A stretch of 26,944 bases of DNA, from the IMG/VR virus record IMGVR_UViG_3300042691_011065, positions 1-26,944 of that record; one strand, given 5' to 3'. A program made the position numbers and the translations under genes. The notes under the pieces were generated by a model. It did no database searches and was not told the DNA's origin. It saw nothing but the letters and a program-made list of their open reading frames with translations. The stretch is from a virus. Position 1 is the first letter of the stretch. Each line of letters starts with the position of its first letter. Positions 1 to 23,166 of the stretch are shown here, in pieces.

Positions 1-443
1 CCGAAGTACTGAGCGTCAAGAACTCTGTAGGCGAACCCATACCCGAGTTCTCCCAACATTCCGAGGAAGGTACCAAAGTCCCGTCCTCCGTTAGACGACA
101 AGACCCCAGGGACATTTTCCCAAACCAACCAACGGGGAGAGAAGTGGCGAGCAATGGCACCAAAGGTAAGCATGAGGTTACCACGCGGGTCGTCCAATCC
201 TTTTCTGAGTCCGGCGACAGAGAAGGATTGACAGGGGGTTCCTCCGACAAGAAGGTCAATTGTTCCAAGATTCCACTCCTTAAATTTGGTCATATCCCCG
301 ACATTCGGGACATTGGGGTAGTGGTGCTTCAGCACCGCGGATGGGAAGGGCTCAATCTCTGAGAAGGCCACAGGCTCCCAACCCATGTGGTGCCAAGCAG
401 ATGTGGCCGCCTCAATCCCGCTGCAGACAGAGAGATATTTCAT
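1..443 (-). CDS. C5-cytosine-specific DNA methyltransferase, N-terminal part (gene runs off the left edge)
   Basis: Transfers a methyl group from S-adenosylmethionine to C5 of cytosine in a target DNA sequence. About 147 codons are visible, with the C-terminus outside the window. The reading begins MKYLSVCSGIEAA, which is motif I, the AdoMet-binding loop. GGTPCQSFSVAG at about residues 67-78 is motif IV with the catalytic Cys71, and WENVPG at about 108-113 is motif VI (ENV). The target-recognition domain is not visible, so specificity cannot be read. The ATG at 443 forms an ATGA overlap with the stop of the upstream gene. In phages these orphan methyltransferases usually protect the genome from host restriction or mimic host methylation; which applies here is inference. 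No cognate endonuclease is visible. Family assignment is very secure. Confidence 0.95.
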   Translation of the reverse strand, partial: MKYLSVCSGIEAATSAWHHMGWEPVAFSEIEPFPSAVLKHHYPNVPNVGDMTKFKEWNLGTIDLLVGGTPCQSFSVAGLRKGLDDPRGNLMLTFGAIARHFSPRWLVWENVPGVLSSNGGRDFGTFLGMLGELGYGFAYRVLDAQYF

Positions 444-652
444 TTAGCGTTGAATTCCTTGTCCACATACTTCTTATTCTGACTGCCTGCCCACAATGAC
501 ACGCAGGCAACCTCAAGAGCTTCTGATGGCGGCTGAGTGCTCAGAACCACTTTCTGACCGGCAGCAAACCCCTCCGCATACCGCTGATCCATGCGGTGCA
601 TAACTAGCAAAATAATTGTTGCGATCGTGCAAAACGCTAATACATATTTCAT
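440..652 (-). CDS. Small single-pass membrane protein, unknown function
   Basis: A 70-aa protein I do not recognise. Residues 3-19 (YVLAFCTIATIILLVMH) are a continuous hydrophobic stretch and look like an uncleaved signal anchor or transmembrane helix. The following segment carries mixed charges and a Gln/Pro-rich stretch (STQPPSEALE), which probably lies on one side of the inner membrane. Its start overlaps the stop of the zinc-ribbon gene by four bases (ATGA), and its own stop overlaps the methyltransferase start in the same way, so it is translated as part of the left early operon. Phage early operons often carry such short membrane proteins, which can act in host takeover or superinfection exclusion; no function is shown here. 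Confidence 0.75.
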   Translation of the reverse strand: MKYVLAFCTIATIILLVMHRMDQRYAEGFAAGQKVVLSTQPPSEALEVACVSLWAGSQNKKYVDKEFNAK

Positions 653-861
653 TCTGCGATCTCCTTATTCTTTTTGAACCCCATAGCATTCATCCGCTTC
701 GCACACTCACCGCATCTCCATACACTACTGCCCTTGCGTTGCATCTGCTTGCCGGTCTCCACAGGTCGATGGCGCTGACAACTAAAGCAGAACTTGGTGC
801 CAAGAACCTTGAGCCCTGCTTCTTTAACCATGTCATAGACTTGACTCTTACCTCTTGCCAT
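649..861 (-). CDS. Small zinc-ribbon-like protein
   Basis: A 70-aa basic protein with two CxxC knuckles, CFSC at about residues 24-27 and CGEC at about 50-53, separated by about 22 residues. This spacing is typical of a zinc ribbon that binds one Zn ion through four cysteines. The flanks are rich in Lys and Arg, which fits binding to nucleic acid or to a host protein, but no specific family is recognised. The start overlaps the stop of the Rap1a-like gene as TAATG, and the end overlaps the next gene as ATGA, so it is translationally coupled on both sides. Small zinc-ribbon proteins are frequent in phage early regions and can be modulators of transcription or replication; that role is only inferred. 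Confidence 0.8.
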   Translation of the reverse strand: MARGKSQVYDMVKEAGLKVLGTKFCFSCQRHRPVETGKQMQRKGSSVWRCGECAKRMNAMGFKKNKEIAE

Positions 862-1190
862 TACGCTCCCTTGCCTTTGCTCTTACATGGCCACACTCGA
901 CGGATTGCGTCAGTCACCAAAAGATCGGCGGCCATGTTCCGTAGCGATGGGTTTTGCTCAAGGTACTGTTGAACCATGTCTTGAATTTGACCGGCATTGA
1001 TACCGCTGCCATTTGGAGCGCAATGTCTAATGTGCTGACCGGCATCGAATACGCCCAAGACATAGCCAAGCCCGTACATCTTGTCCATGTACTCATTGCT
1101 CTTTAGCCGTGAGAGAAGGTCGTTTCCGCTTACGAACTCCGCATGAGCCATAGCGGGAACCATCAGTAACGCAACTAGAATCTTTTTCAT
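861..1190 (-). CDS. Secreted Rap1a/Tai-like protein (type VI immunity-protein fold)
   Basis: A 109-aa protein with a clear Sec signal peptide: MKK, a hydrophobic core, then AHA with cleavage after about residue 17, giving a periplasmic protein of about 92 aa. The mature part resembles the Rap1a/Tai family in pattern: LLSRLKS near the start, GYVLGVFDA at about 42-50, a cysteine at 57 followed by PNG, a VQQYLEQNPSLRNMAADLLV segment at 73-92, and a final WPC. Cys57 and Cys102 could form the disulfide typical of the family. Rap1a proteins neutralise type VI amidase effectors in Serratia; homologues also occur in phage genomes with no proven role. The TGA of the preceding gene overlaps its ATG (ATGA). 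Assignment rests on motif memory only, without a search. Confidence 0.75.
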   Translation of the reverse strand: MKKILVALLMVPAMAHAEFVSGNDLLSRLKSNEYMDKMYGLGYVLGVFDAGQHIRHCAPNGSGINAGQIQDMVQQYLEQNPSLRNMAADLLVTDAIRRVWPCKSKGKGA

Positions 1191-1378
1191 TTCTGTTCCC
1201 TCTTCATCATGTTTTCAACAAGCGATGCGTGCATCTTCATCTGCGAGGCTATATCGATGATTCGGGCGTAGTTCGGCATATAGGTCTGCCGGGTTTCCCT
1301 GTTTAACTCCATAATTAGTCTGTTTAGCGACACAACATGACTGCTTAAATCAGGCACATCTTGAACAATTGAGCTCAT
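1187..1378 (-). CDS. Small helical protein, unknown function
   Basis: A 63-aa protein of unrecognised family, beginning MSSIVQDVPDLSSHVVSL. I chose the ATG at 1378 over the in-frame ATG ten codons upstream because AGGAG sits five bases before 1378, while the upstream ATG has no convincing SD and would overlap the preceding gene by 22 bases. The residues suggest two helices (about 8-28 and 35-60), mostly polar, with no membrane segment or signal peptide. Its stop overlaps the Rap1a-like start as ATGA, so the two proteins are probably made together. No function can be read. Confidence 0.65.
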   Translation of the reverse strand: MSSIVQDVPDLSSHVVSLNRLIMELNRETRQTYMPNYARIIDIASQMKMHASLVENMMKREQK

Positions 1379-1386
1379 GGCTTCTC

Positions 1387-1590
1387 CTATCGAACTCGTA
1401 CTTGACATGAATACGCCTGCGTTGCATCCCTAAACGATCCAATAATCTTGCAATCATCCGTGATCTGTTTTGTCTGCCATGCCATCCCAAAAACAAACGC
1501 AAGCCCCACTACCAAAAACCATCCAAACGATTCCTTCCATTGGTTTACTATCCGCTCCCAAATCTTCTTGAAATCAATTAAGTCTTTCAT
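1387..1590 (-). CDS. Small single-pass membrane protein, unknown function
   Basis: A 67-aa protein with one transmembrane helix at about residues 21-39 (ESFGWFLVVGLAFVFGMAW). A basic and aromatic N-terminus (KDLIDFKKIWERIVNQWK) probably faces the cytoplasm, and the short C-terminus contains two cysteines (DDCKIIG and YSCQV) that could pair in the periplasm. The start is well supported by a GAGGAGG sequence six bases upstream of the ATG. The family is not recognised. It is flanked by other small early genes, and the following gene begins eight bases after its stop. Confidence 0.75.
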   Translation of the reverse strand: MKDLIDFKKIWERIVNQWKESFGWFLVVGLAFVFGMAWQTKQITDDCKIIGSFRDATQAYSCQVRVR

Positions 1591-20624: not shown

Positions 20625-21259
20625 TGTGAATCCAATACAGTAGCTTGACGATCTGCGATCCGGGTAACGTCTTCAGCCTTCAAGGTATTGATGATCTTGT
20701 CGTACTGAGCCTGCCACATCGGGGTGCGGTCATCGTTTTTAAGGAAAGGCATGGCCTGCAACAGAGTCCCGTACAGGAGCGCCTGGGGTGCGTAAATCGT
20801 GAACCAATTGGTCTGATTTGAGGAATCTAGGGGCTGAATCCGCTCATAGTAGAGCACCTCAAAGGTATAGGCAGACGCCGGGGTCGGAGCTACCAACCAA
20901 TGGGTATAGTCATAGTCACAATAAAATTTGGGGACATCCGTTTGAGTAGCATCAGGCCAATACTCCCGAAGGTACTCATACTTGCGAAGCAGGACAGGCT
21001 GACGCTCACCGGCCACGACCACATTCATGGAGACCGTCTTATGCCACCGGGCGGGCTTGTCGATGACCGGTTGGGTCGCCACCATCGTGCTCTGCTGAAC
21101 CGTCAGATTGCCCAAAAACTTGATTTCTGAGGCAATAACCTGCTCAGCCAACATGATGAAGGTTGGGATCTTGTCTAGGGTGGCTTGGTCGGTTCGCTCT
21201 AGGTAAGACGAAATATCGTCCACCAAAGAGTTATAAGTCATGACGGCGGCGGTTGGCAT
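20621..21259 (-). CDS. Head-tail adaptor (T7 gp11 / SU10-adaptor-like)
   Basis: Connects the portal to the tail nozzle as a dodecameric ring. The 212-aa protein has an N-terminal helix bundle (TYNSLVDDISSYLERTDQ, PTFIMLAEQVIASEIKFLG), a beta core with YCDYDYTHWLVAPTPASAYT and FEVLYYERIQPLD, and a C-terminal helix pair (APQALLYGTLLQAMPFLKND, then WQAQYDKIINTLKAED). This layout is that of the podovirus adaptor or tail tubular protein A. I set the start at ATG 21259, which overlaps the preceding stop as TAATG, rather than the GTG two codons upstream. Fits its position before the nozzle gene. Confidence 0.8.
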   Translation of the reverse strand: MPTAAVMTYNSLVDDISSYLERTDQATLDKIPTFIMLAEQVIASEIKFLGNLTVQQSTMVATQPVIDKPARWHKTVSMNVVVAGERQPVLLRKYEYLREYWPDATQTDVPKFYCDYDYTHWLVAPTPASAYTFEVLYYERIQPLDSSNQTNWFTIYAPQALLYGTLLQAMPFLKNDDRTPMWQAQYDKIINTLKAEDVTRIADRQATVLDSQ

Positions 21260-21426
21260 TACCACTTCCCTTTCTTAGCCTTGGCTCCAGCCATATTAGC
21301 CACCAAGGATGGGTACTTAGTCCCTGTCTTTTTTGCAAACGCTTTTGCTGCCCGTTTTTGGTTTGGGCTTAGCGACTTGGGCTTTCCTAGGCTTTTTGGC
21401 CGGTCTTTTTCCCATACTTCTGCCAT
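21259..21426 (-). CDS. Small basic protein, unknown function
   Basis: A 55-aa, very basic protein reading MAEVWEKDRPKSLGKPKSLS, with QKRAAKAFAKKTGTKYPSLV and a Lys/Gly/Trp end. AGGAGG is placed five bases before the ATG and the stop overlaps the adaptor start as TAATG, so translation is well supported. It resembles small basic proteins encoded near the head-tail genes of other podovirus-like phages, in which a DNA-binding or packaging role is suspected. No family is secure. Confidence 0.7.
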   Translation of the reverse strand: MAEVWEKDRPKSLGKPKSLSPNQKRAAKAFAKKTGTKYPSLVANMAGAKAKKGKW

Positions 21427-21435
21427 CTGAGCCTC

Positions 21436-21516
21436 CTATTTTTTTTTAAACAACGATTGAATTTTGGCCTTCAAAGAGGCAAAAAACTCTTTAATCTTGG
21501 CTACGATCTTTTTCAT
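21436..21516 (-). CDS. 26-aa cationic amphipathic peptide, candidate lysis peptide
   Basis: A tiny gene directly after the endolysin. It reads MKKIVAKIKEFFASLKAKIQ and then ends SLFKKK: nine Lys, one Glu, net charge about +8. Hydrophobic residues I4, V5, I8, F11, F12, L15, I19, L22 and F23 fall on one face of a helix, with the lysines on the other, so the peptide is strongly amphipathic like cationic antimicrobial peptides. GGAGGT stands five bases before the ATG, and the ATG overlaps the endolysin stop as ATGA, both strong signs of translation. Known phage disruptins, such as phiKT gp28, are small cationic peptides that break the outer membrane in lysis; this is the analogy I draw. It has no signal sequence or lipobox. 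It may instead be an assembly or regulatory peptide. Confidence 0.65.
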   Translation of the reverse strand: MKKIVAKIKEFFASLKAKIQSLFKKK

Positions 21517-22001
21517 GTCGCACCTCCGCTTAAATAGAGTGCCCGCTCATCCTTTCGGCGGCGCACCAAACCCGGCAATTCTTTCCCGCCGGCCTTAGTC
21601 CACATCATAAATGCGTCTGCGGCATCCTGAAACTGACCCCTGTTGTGACGCATCCGAATCGAACTTCTTTGAAGGTTACCTAGACCAAAGTTGAAACTCG
21701 CGCTAACGAGTGCATCAAACCTAGACTGATTAAGCCCAGAAGGACATAGTCGGAGTACCCCTGCCTCAAACCTCGCCAAATCCTGAGCAAGAATCTGGTC
21801 AACCTCATCCATAGTGAGGGTTCGATCCCAACCCGGCGGGATGGGTAGGTTTTTACGGTCTTCAAGTTTGACTCCAATATGCGAGGGGTCAATTACATGG
21901 CCGACAGCCGTTGTCCAAAGCAAGGCAGGGCACCTGTAGGGGCGAAATCTGACCCCCTCATGGTGCTTGATCATTTCGATCGCCTTGGCTGAGGTTTTCA
22001 T
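21513..22001 (-). CDS. Endolysin, GH24 muramidase
   Basis: Cleaves the beta-1,4 bond between N-acetylmuramic acid and N-acetylglucosamine at the end of infection. The 162-aa length and the motif E15-(8 aa)-C24-(5 aa)-T30, in HHEGVRFRPYRCPALLWTTA, give the GH24 catalytic triad; the family accepts Cys in place of Asp at the middle position. FDALVSASFNFGLGNLQRSS at about 95-114 and GLVRRRKDERALYL near the end are further family marks. There is no signal-anchor segment, so it needs a holin to reach the wall. The ATG overlaps the holin stop as ATGA. It is followed immediately by the cationic peptide gene. Confidence 0.95.
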   Translation of the reverse strand: MKTSAKAIEMIKHHEGVRFRPYRCPALLWTTAVGHVIDPSHIGVKLEDRKNLPIPPGWDRTLTMDEVDQILAQDLARFEAGVLRLCPSGLNQSRFDALVSASFNFGLGNLQRSSIRMRHNRGQFQDAADAFMMWTKAGGKELPGLVRRRKDERALYLSGGAT

Positions 22002-22483
22002 CGCTTCCCAAAAGCCTGCGTCCCAAACCAGAAAGCAATGATTGATGAAAAGACTATGGCTGAATCCTCATCCCACAGGATGTCCAAAGCCTGATCAAAG
22101 GGCACTCCCATGTACCAGGCATAGTAGGCACCAAAAACATTGACCGCCACCAACATCAGGAACATTCCGTAGGTGATGACCGGACGCACCGATGCTCGAA
22201 GGTTGATGATTAGTTGAGAGGCTCCTTGACCAATGGCCACATCGTGGGCGTACAGGGCTTCCCGCTCCTGAACCGCGGTCTGCATGGCTATCTGATCGGT
22301 ACGAATCTCTTCCATCCGCATCTGAGCGGCGTATCCGGCCTCCAAGAGCTTTAGTTCCCGCTCTAGTTGGAGTTGAGCCAAGGACATCTCATGCGCCTTA
22401 TCTGACCGATCCTGCATGAAATTGAGGATTTTGGGAAGACCGCCAGCCAAAAACGACACTAGGGTGGAAAGTAAGGTGATCAT
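21998..22483 (-). CDS. Holin, 3TM type (GTA_holin_3TM-like)
   Basis: Permeabilises the inner membrane so that the endolysin can act. The 161-aa protein has an N-terminal hydrophobic helix (about 1-21, LSTLVSFLAGGLPKILNF), a long charged coiled coil (27-78, SLAQLQLERELKLLEAGYA), and two transmembrane helices at about 101-124 (PVITYGMFLMLVAVNVFGAY) and 141-157 (SAIVFSSIIAFWFGTQA). The ending FWFGTQAFGKR is typical of the 3TM holin family described from gene transfer agents (PF11351). It stands directly before the endolysin with an ATGA overlap. The family match is from memory of pattern. Confidence 0.85.
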   Translation of the reverse strand: MITLLSTLVSFLAGGLPKILNFMQDRSDKAHEMSLAQLQLERELKLLEAGYAAQMRMEEIRTDQIAMQTAVQEREALYAHDVAIGQGASQLIINLRASVRPVITYGMFLMLVAVNVFGAYYAWYMGVPFDQALDILWDEDSAIVFSSIIAFWFGTQAFGKR

Positions 22484-22484
22484 G

Positions 22485-22823
22485 TCAGCCCCTTGTGATT
22501 ACGGTGTCATCGCCCTTATGGACGGTTACGCGGCCATTCTCAACATCGACCCGCATTGGGGCCTCTTTTTGGTCTAGGCGCTGAATGAGGTCTTTAATTA
22601 CTTGGAATTCAGGCTTCTCTTCCTTGTCTTTGGTGCCGGTAATGCCTGCAATCATCGAAATTAGAGCCATGATGACACCTGAAGCCATACCAACGATCGG
22701 GGTTAGGGCTTCGGAAGTGAGCTTCATCGCTGAATAGATCACCATGCCGACCATGAGAACGATTGCCGGGATACCAATAACCCCAATGACCTTACTTGCT
22801 AGTTCTTTTGCGCTTTTTTCCAT
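22485..22823 (-). CDS. Two-pass membrane protein, possible second holin or antiholin
   Basis: A 112-aa protein, MEKSAKELASKVIGVIGIPA, with transmembrane helices at about 12-33 (VIGVIGIPAIVLMVGMVIYS) and 41-63 (TPIVGMASGVIMALISMIAG), then a charged cytoplasmic-type tail (about 65-112). I chose ATG 22823 since it overlaps the stop of the upstream 25-aa gene as TGATG and GGGGG is close upstream; the longer frame would read through that gene. The stop is one base before the holin start. Two-TM proteins beside a holin often regulate or duplicate it, but nothing in the sequence identifies which. Confidence 0.7.
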   Translation of the reverse strand: MEKSAKELASKVIGVIGIPAIVLMVGMVIYSAMKLTSEALTPIVGMASGVIMALISMIAGITGTKDKEEKPEFQVIKDLIQRLDQKEAPMRVDVENGRVTVHKGDDTVITRG

Positions 22824-22900
22824 CACAACCCCCATATGAATGCGGCTAATGCAATCATCAGTATCAGGACGCCCAAGAAAACAAACGTCCAAAAGCCCAT
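22823..22900 (-). CDS. 25-aa single-pass membrane peptide
   Basis: A very short gene joined to both neighbours: its ATG overlaps the upstream stop as TAATG and its stop overlaps the downstream start as TGATG. It begins MGFWTFVFLGVLILMIALAA and ends FIWGL, with no charged residue at all, so it is one uninterrupted transmembrane helix. Small hydrophobic peptides of this size can act as minimal holins, holin regulators or host-membrane agents. The exact fit of both junctions is the main evidence that it is translated, as it is too short for statistical support. Confidence 0.5.
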   Translation of the reverse strand: MGFWTFVFLGVLILMIALAAFIWGL

Positions 22901-23166
22901 TATTTGTCTACTTTCCCGTTTAGCCTGTCAAACAACTGACCAATCATGGTTTCTATCTTGTGAAACCCATGATTCATATCGGTTTTGACATCCTTGAAAG
23001 ACTCGCGCATCTCATCTTTACGGGCATAAACCTCAGGCAAGTCTCTCTCAAGACGGTGAATATCTCGACGAAGTTCTTTCACGGCGTCCCAGATCTCTCT
23101 AGCAAACCACCCAAGGGCAGCCAATAGCGAACCACCGCCAATATTGATGACCGTCTGCCATTCCAT
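22900..23166 (-). CDS. N-terminal-TM plus coiled-coil protein of the lysis cassette
   Basis: An 88-aa protein, MEWQTVINIGGGSLLAALGW, with one membrane helix (about 6-24) followed by a long charged coiled coil (28-82: DAVKELRRDIHRLERDLPEV, then DVKTDMNHGFHKIETMIGQL). The layout resembles an inner-membrane spanin (i-spanin) or XhlA-like holin-associated protein. By the positive-inside rule the Arg-rich side after the helix would remain in the cytoplasm, which argues against a spanin. No o-spanin lipoprotein is nearby. Small proteins of this type stand in the lysis region of many phages, of unknown role. It starts four bases after the previous stop. Confidence 0.7.
   Translation of the reverse strand: MEWQTVINIGGGSLLAALGWFAREIWDAVKELRRDIHRLERDLPEVYARKDEMRESFKDVKTDMNHGFHKIETMIGQLFDRLNGKVDK

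What the first reader, a model, noticed from the sequence alone, without database searches (positions are those of the whole stretch)
21436..21516. A 26-aa cationic amphipathic peptide coupled to the endolysin: candidate disruptin-like lysis peptide
Seen: an 81-base gene with its own SD (GGAGGT, five bases before ATG) and an ATGA overlap with the endolysin stop. The product has nine Lys and one Glu, and its hydrophobic residues (4, 5, 8, 11, 12, 15, 19, 22, 23) line one helix face. No lipobox and no clear Rz/Rz1 pair is found in the cassette. Known: Gram-negative phages need outer-membrane disruption, normally by spanins; some use small cationic peptides called disruptins. Inference: this gene fills the spanin role and is among the smallest such candidates.
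Basis: partly seen in the sequence, partly recalled or inferred. Interest (0 to 1): 0.75.

Follow-up and report, generated by a model that had tools for sequence, protein, structure and literature searches.

The report
Tiny membrane-breaking peptide beside phage endolysin
This phage carries a real, conserved 26-residue positively charged helix gene joined to the end of its cell-wall-cutting enzyme gene, in the exact place where sister phages keep the genes that break the bacterial outer membrane, so it probably does that job, and other sisters seem to hide a look-alike peptide inside their own enzyme gene.

Summary
It is a real gene: a diverged orthologue (28 aa, 54% identical, +10, own GGAGG) follows a 75% identical endolysin in related contigs, with codon-position identities 15/17/6 of 22 and every hydrophobic-face position but the last kept. 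No lipoprotein spanin was found in the window or in two 54-56 kb contigs. In syntenic relatives the same slot holds embedded Rz/Rz1 spanin pairs of two lineages. Best reading: a disruptin-like outer-membrane disruptor (about 0.62), supported by position and anatomy, not activity. Against certainty: 20 GH24 relatives have neither spanin nor peptide in the slot. Unexpected: the closest relatives by adaptor gene use an M15 endolysin, and a +1-frame ORF nested inside it encodes a register-matched cationic helix (MKNLLARIRQFGSALKTRLMSLKSKI...). Synonymous variation over its core is cut to about 0.3x, against about 1.1x in 135 control groups, so it looks like a genuine overlapping gene. The kind (disruptin, phiKT gp28) is known; half-size and endolysin-nested versions are new variants.

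The parts
21436..21516 (-). 26-aa cationic amphipathic peptide gene, MKKIVAKIKEFFASLKAKIQSLFKKK, net charge +8
   Evidence: orthologue in L018/L019/L170
21522..21527 (-). Shine-Dalgarno GGAGGT, 5 nt before the ATG, inside the endolysin 3' end
21513..22001 (-). GH24 endolysin (PF00959), 162 aa, no signal or anchor seen; its stop overlaps the peptide start (ATGA)
21998..22483 (-). 161-aa membrane protein (phrog_6637), likely holin; overlaps the endolysin start
   Evidence: conserved before the endolysin in relatives. Holin role is inference
22485..22826 (-). 113-aa small membrane protein of the cassette, second holin/antiholin candidate
   Evidence: role is inference
22900..23166 (-). 88-aa protein, short N-terminal hydrophobic stretch plus coiled coil; no lipoprotein partner found; absent from the orthologue's cassette (L018)
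21259..21426 (-). 55-aa basic protein (phrog_34011); its SD AGGAGG (21432-21437) overlaps the peptide stop codon
20621..21259 (-). SU10-type adaptor (PF24175), the synteny anchor used to compare relatives

Best explanation
A genuine late lysis gene whose 26-aa product forms a cationic amphipathic helix and serves as the outer-membrane disruptor in place of Rz/Rz1. Proposed order of events: translationally coupled to the endolysin, the peptide builds up in the cytoplasm (it has no signal sequence); when the holin opens the inner membrane it escapes with the endolysin, binds LPS and the outer leaflet through its Lys face, inserts its hydrophobic face and breaks the outer membrane once the wall is cut. 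Shown: gene reality, cassette position, spanin slot sharing, helix-face and charge conservation, no spanin found. Inferred: timing, release and membrane action.
For: Orthologue at the same place (+15 nt, GGAGG) after a 75% identical endolysin, 54% aa identity; codon-position identity 15/17/6 of 22, BLOSUM 61 vs null -4.5 (sd 17.2), p < 5e-5. Hydrophobic positions 4,5,8,11,12,15,19,22 kept in both. In two syntenic lineages the endolysin-to-adaptor slot holds an Rz gene with embedded Rz1 (L185/186; L188/191/205/207/209/214/499), lipobox LTAC, PHROG Rz-like spanin E 1.6e-8 for the L185 Rz. No lipoprotein in window, G001 (56 kb) or G002 (54 kb). Residues 2-21 align without gaps to the LL-37 KRIVQRIKDFLR region (p = 0.0006 against pattern-preserving shuffles; Pfam CAP18_C E 0.007, below its cut-off). 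phiKT gp28, the prototype disruptin, also starts inside the end of its endolysin gene. Close relatives with another endolysin encode a register-matched nested peptide under +1-frame constraint.
Against: 20 syntenic GH24 relatives, and those with M15b or GH108 endolysins, show neither spanin nor such a peptide in the slot, so the lineage may have another outer-membrane solution. The orthologue is known from only two lineages. LL-37 likeness is far weaker for the orthologue (p = 0.09) and there is no sequence relation to phiKT gp28. No host is known and no activity data exist. Contigs are not proven complete.
Confidence: 0.62

Rival explanations
1. A real small basic peptide with a non-envelope role, such as nucleic-acid or capsid binding or regulation of holin or endolysin, that happens to sit in the lysis operon.
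For: The next gene also encodes a small basic protein (21259-21426; phrog_34011) and other relatives have non-amphipathic basic micro-ORFs after the endolysin (L112, L082).
Against: One clean hydrophobic face, kept position by position in the diverged orthologue, and the slot is where spanins sit.
Confidence: 0.2
2. A coupling or leader ORF whose translation only feeds ribosomes to the downstream gene, its product being irrelevant.
For: Its stop overlaps the AGGAGG of the next gene and the orthologue's stop overlaps the next start.
Against: Amino acids, not only the frame, are conserved: third positions 6/22 identical against 15/22 and 17/22.
Confidence: 0.08
3. A membrane-acting peptide aimed at the inner membrane (holin helper or depolariser) rather than the outer membrane.
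For: Cationic amphipathic helices act on any anionic membrane (general knowledge); made in the cytoplasm without a signal it meets the inner membrane first.
Against: Two other membrane genes precede the endolysin, and the slot occupants in sister phages are outer-membrane disruptors.
Confidence: 0.1

Closest known systems
Disruptin gp28 of Escherichia phage phiKT (Holt et al. 2021/2022, cited in PMC12819732; primary paper not held)
   Same: Small cationic phage peptide encoded directly after the endolysin with an overlapping start; spanin-less cassette; described as LL-37-like in effect (PMC12819732)
   Different: 56 aa against 26; no sequence similarity (p 0.50); charge here is far denser (+8 in 26 against +7 in 56); activity here is untested
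LL-37 / cathelicidin CAP18 C-terminal domain (PF12153)
   Same: Residues 2-21 align without gaps to the region KRIVQRIKDFLR of LL-37; same helix-face pattern
   Different: Pfam score below cut-off (16.7 vs 20.5 bits); best taken as convergence; phage peptide has no precursor
Embedded two-component spanins Rz/Rz1
   Same: Occupy the same slot between endolysin and adaptor-side genes in sister phages
   Different: Spanins are lipoprotein plus inner-membrane coiled coil; this peptide has neither lipobox nor anchor

Membership tests
Disruptin (phage outer-membrane-disrupting cationic peptide) | Small cationic amphipathic helix without signal sequence or lipobox | tested here: met
Disruptin (phage outer-membrane-disrupting cationic peptide) | Encoded in the lysis cassette next to holin and endolysin | tested here: met
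   the endolysin is certain, the holin assignment is inference
Disruptin (phage outer-membrane-disrupting cationic peptide) | Phage lacks spanins | tested here: met
   no credible lipoprotein in the window, G001 56 kb or G002 54 kb; contig completeness not proven
Disruptin (phage outer-membrane-disrupting cationic peptide) | Required for lysis and disrupts the outer membrane | not testable with these tools
   Needs expression, complementation or peptide assay
Disruptin phiKT gp28 sequence family | Sequence homology to gp28 | tested here: not met
   best ungapped match 5 residues, p 0.50
Spanin (Rz/Rz1 or unimolecular) | Lipobox lipoprotein and/or transmembrane anchor | tested here: not met
   sequence
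Cathelicidin C-terminal domain PF12153 | Reaches the Pfam gathering score | tested here: not met
   16.7 vs 20.5 bits

The most novel reading that the evidence does not exclude
Within one phage lineage the outer-membrane step is swapped between three devices at the endolysin locus: embedded Rz/Rz1 spanins, a free 26-28 aa peptide gene, and a convergent cationic helix overprinted in the +1 frame inside the M15 endolysin gene itself, so that one stretch of DNA encodes both the wall-cutting enzyme and the membrane disruptor.
Probability: 0.4. Interest if true: 0.78.

Novelty: new variant of a known kind. Interest (0 to 1): 0.6.

Why it matters
About 13% of surveyed tailed phages of Gram-negative hosts have no recognised spanin (91 of 677 in PMC6139136), and whether disruptins fill the gap is stated to be an open question (PMC12819732). 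This lineage gives a natural experiment in which the same slot holds either spanins or a micropeptide, with explicit, testable candidates at half the prototype's size. The nested version would show that annotation pipelines can miss the outer-membrane disruptor altogether, because it lies inside the endolysin gene.

Tried and rejected
tblastn of the peptide against phages: nothing. The search for related loci with the two-peptide alignment confirmed only the sister contig. Degenerate DNA patterns in viral and genome contigs gave many MKK-type starts; none of the viral ones I inspected lay in a lysis cassette apart from the known orthologues, and the 27 genome-contig hits, mostly Firmicutes MAGs, were not followed up. 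A 43-aa cationic ORF inside the adaptor of L003 and a 42-aa one in L066 are out-of-frame, one-off matches; rejected as chance. L112 and L082 micro-ORFs after the endolysin are basic but not amphipathic. The nested M15 ORFs were first taken for chance; the comparison of synonymous variation with controls changed that for the L158 clade but not for L159, which has one sequence only. PDB search with the two-peptide profile: no meaningful hit. The classical hydrophobic moment alone is not a strong argument (p 0.045). The 67-aa and 70-aa single-TM ORFs near 440-1590 are not spanins by any test used (no lipobox).

Full report
OBSERVATION. The ORF is on the minus strand, 21516 to 21436, and reads MKKIVAKIKEFFASLKAKIQSLFKKK. 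The SD GGAGGT is 5 nt upstream and the start overlaps the endolysin stop as ATGA. The endolysin is a GH24 lysozyme (PF00959). Upstream on the same strand lie a 161-aa membrane protein (phrog_6637), a 113-aa membrane protein and an 88-aa coiled-coil protein; downstream a 55-aa basic protein and an SU10-type adaptor.

IS IT A GENE? The window is an IMG/VR virus record. One contig, G001 of 56 kb, is identical over the 6 kb around the gene, so it adds length but no evolution. The endolysin scan showed a second lineage (L018, L019; later L170) with the peptide MKKLIEKIKALFQKLKQKIKSITIKAKK 15 nt after an endolysin 75% identical to this one, with its own GGAGG. Aligned over 22 codons the two genes share 15, 17 and 6 nucleotides at codon positions 1, 2 and 3; the in-frame BLOSUM score is 61, against -29 and -14 in the other forward frames and a column-permutation null of -4.5 with sd 17.2, none of 20,000 reaching it. 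That is a protein gene under purifying selection. Hydrophobic positions 4, 5, 8, 11, 12, 15, 19 and 22 are kept although residues change, and charge is +8 and +10. Clustering of V/I/L/M/F/W on one face: R = 0.74, p = 2e-5; the Eisenberg moment is moderate.

IS THERE A SPANIN? A lipobox scan found no credible lipoprotein in the window, in G001 (56 kb) or in G002 (54 kb), but found Rz1 in L188, L205 and L209. Its one blind spot among the controls was L185, whose fully embedded Rz1 was seen only on reading the frames. Related contigs of 54-56 kb suggest these two are near full length (inference).

WHAT DO RELATIVES KEEP IN THIS PLACE? Using the adaptor as anchor, the slot between a GH24 endolysin and the next gene holds: embedded Rz/Rz1 in L185/L186 (Rz matches PHROG Rz-like spanin at 1.6e-8; Rz1 MRTKLLLFATTLSLTACASAPKPVKTQCP...) and in L188, L191, L205, L207, L209, L214 and L499 (Rz1 MKRVIWLLVIPLWLTACATGRSAPPKPVPCPIPPAL... 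and variants); the cationic peptide in the window/L002 and L018/L019/L170; and nothing recognisable in about 20 others. Spanin carriers lack the peptide and peptide carriers lack spanins. This is position evidence for a shared role, limited by the empty-slot relatives. Over all 182 distinct GH24 loci only the two lineages have the peptide.

AN UNEXPECTED SECOND FORM. The relatives closest to the window by adaptor (L158, L160, L161, L163-L167; 85-93%) have no GH24 but an M15_3 endolysin (PF08291). The peptide profile found in them, in the +1 frame inside the endolysin gene, an ORF with GGAG (10 nt before the ATG, a longish spacing): MKNLLARIRQFGSALKTRLMSLKSKI plus a variable tail, 36-40 aa, charge +9 to +13. 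MAFFT aligns it to the window peptide without gaps over 26 residues (38% identity). I treated it as chance and tested that. Synonymous codon shuffling gives a cationic nested SD ORF at that place in 0.3-4% of trials. Over nested residues 1-26, 4 of 21 conserved degenerate codons vary synonymously against 61 of 92 elsewhere (Fisher p 9e-5), while amino-acid change is not reduced, which argues against a homogenised recombination tract; the low stretch starts at the SD codons and ends where the helix core ends. In 135 control groups (overlapping samples) of other M15 endolysins without the ORF the same ratio is never below 0.81 (median 1.13), against 0.28 here. AlphaFold predicts a single helix 2-30 (mean pLDDT 79). 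Since the enzyme frame is homologous to M15 genes that lack the ORF, it most likely arose by overprinting, making the likeness convergent (inference). L159, the second-nearest, has a different nested ORF (MIKSFLSSIRGRISAFLTRLKQRLKGKS, AAGGAG) near the gene's 3' end; one sequence, null 6%, undecided. 192 GH24 endolysin genes contain no such nested ORF. L168, with a GH108 endolysin, shows none.

MECHANISM. Best supported: outer-membrane disruption after holin-mediated release, like the disruptin of phiKT. The phiKT record shows gp28 (56 aa, +7) starting 8 nt inside the end of its endolysin gene, the same arrangement. Literature describes that disruptin as a short amphipathic helix with LL-37-like effects and calls the question whether spanin-less phages encode such peptides open (PMC12819732). 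Residues 2-21 here align without gaps to LL-37's KRIVQRIKDFLRNLVPRTES, though the orthologue does so much less; I take this as convergence. Membership in the phiKT sequence family is not met; working like a disruptin is supported by anatomy and position, not by activity.

VERDICT. Real gene, about 0.93. Disruptin-like outer-membrane role, 0.62. The nested form being a real overlapping gene, about 0.65; that it is also a disruptor, about 0.4.

Noticed in passing
L158:3167-3289 (also L160, L161, L163-L167, L504): +1-frame ORF nested in the M15 endolysin gene encodes a register-matched cationic amphipathic helix; synonymous variation over its core is about 0.3x of the rest of the gene.
   Followed up: yes
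L159:1495-1581: A different nested +1-frame ORF with AAGGAG near the 3' end of an M15 endolysin, MIKSFLSSIRGRISAFLTRLKQRLKGKS, +8; only one sequence, so selection cannot be tested.
   Followed up: partly
L185:3122-3598: Rz gene with a fully embedded Rz1 (MRTKLLLFATTLSLTACASAPK...) in the slot where the window has the peptide.
   Followed up: yes
window 440-1590 minus: Three small membrane or exported ORFs near each other (67 aa single TM, 109 aa with signal peptide, 70 aa single TM), with counterparts kept in G002; function unknown.
   Followed up: no
L003:5545-6342: Lys/Gly-rich 265-aa repetitive protein directly after a GH24 endolysin.
   Followed up: no
L259:3696-3776: 26-aa ORF MKKIVNKIKEIVKTIGEIYKNKRNNI with a strong SD directly after an apparent folD-like gene on a 112 kb contig; similar start, different context.
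   Followed up: no
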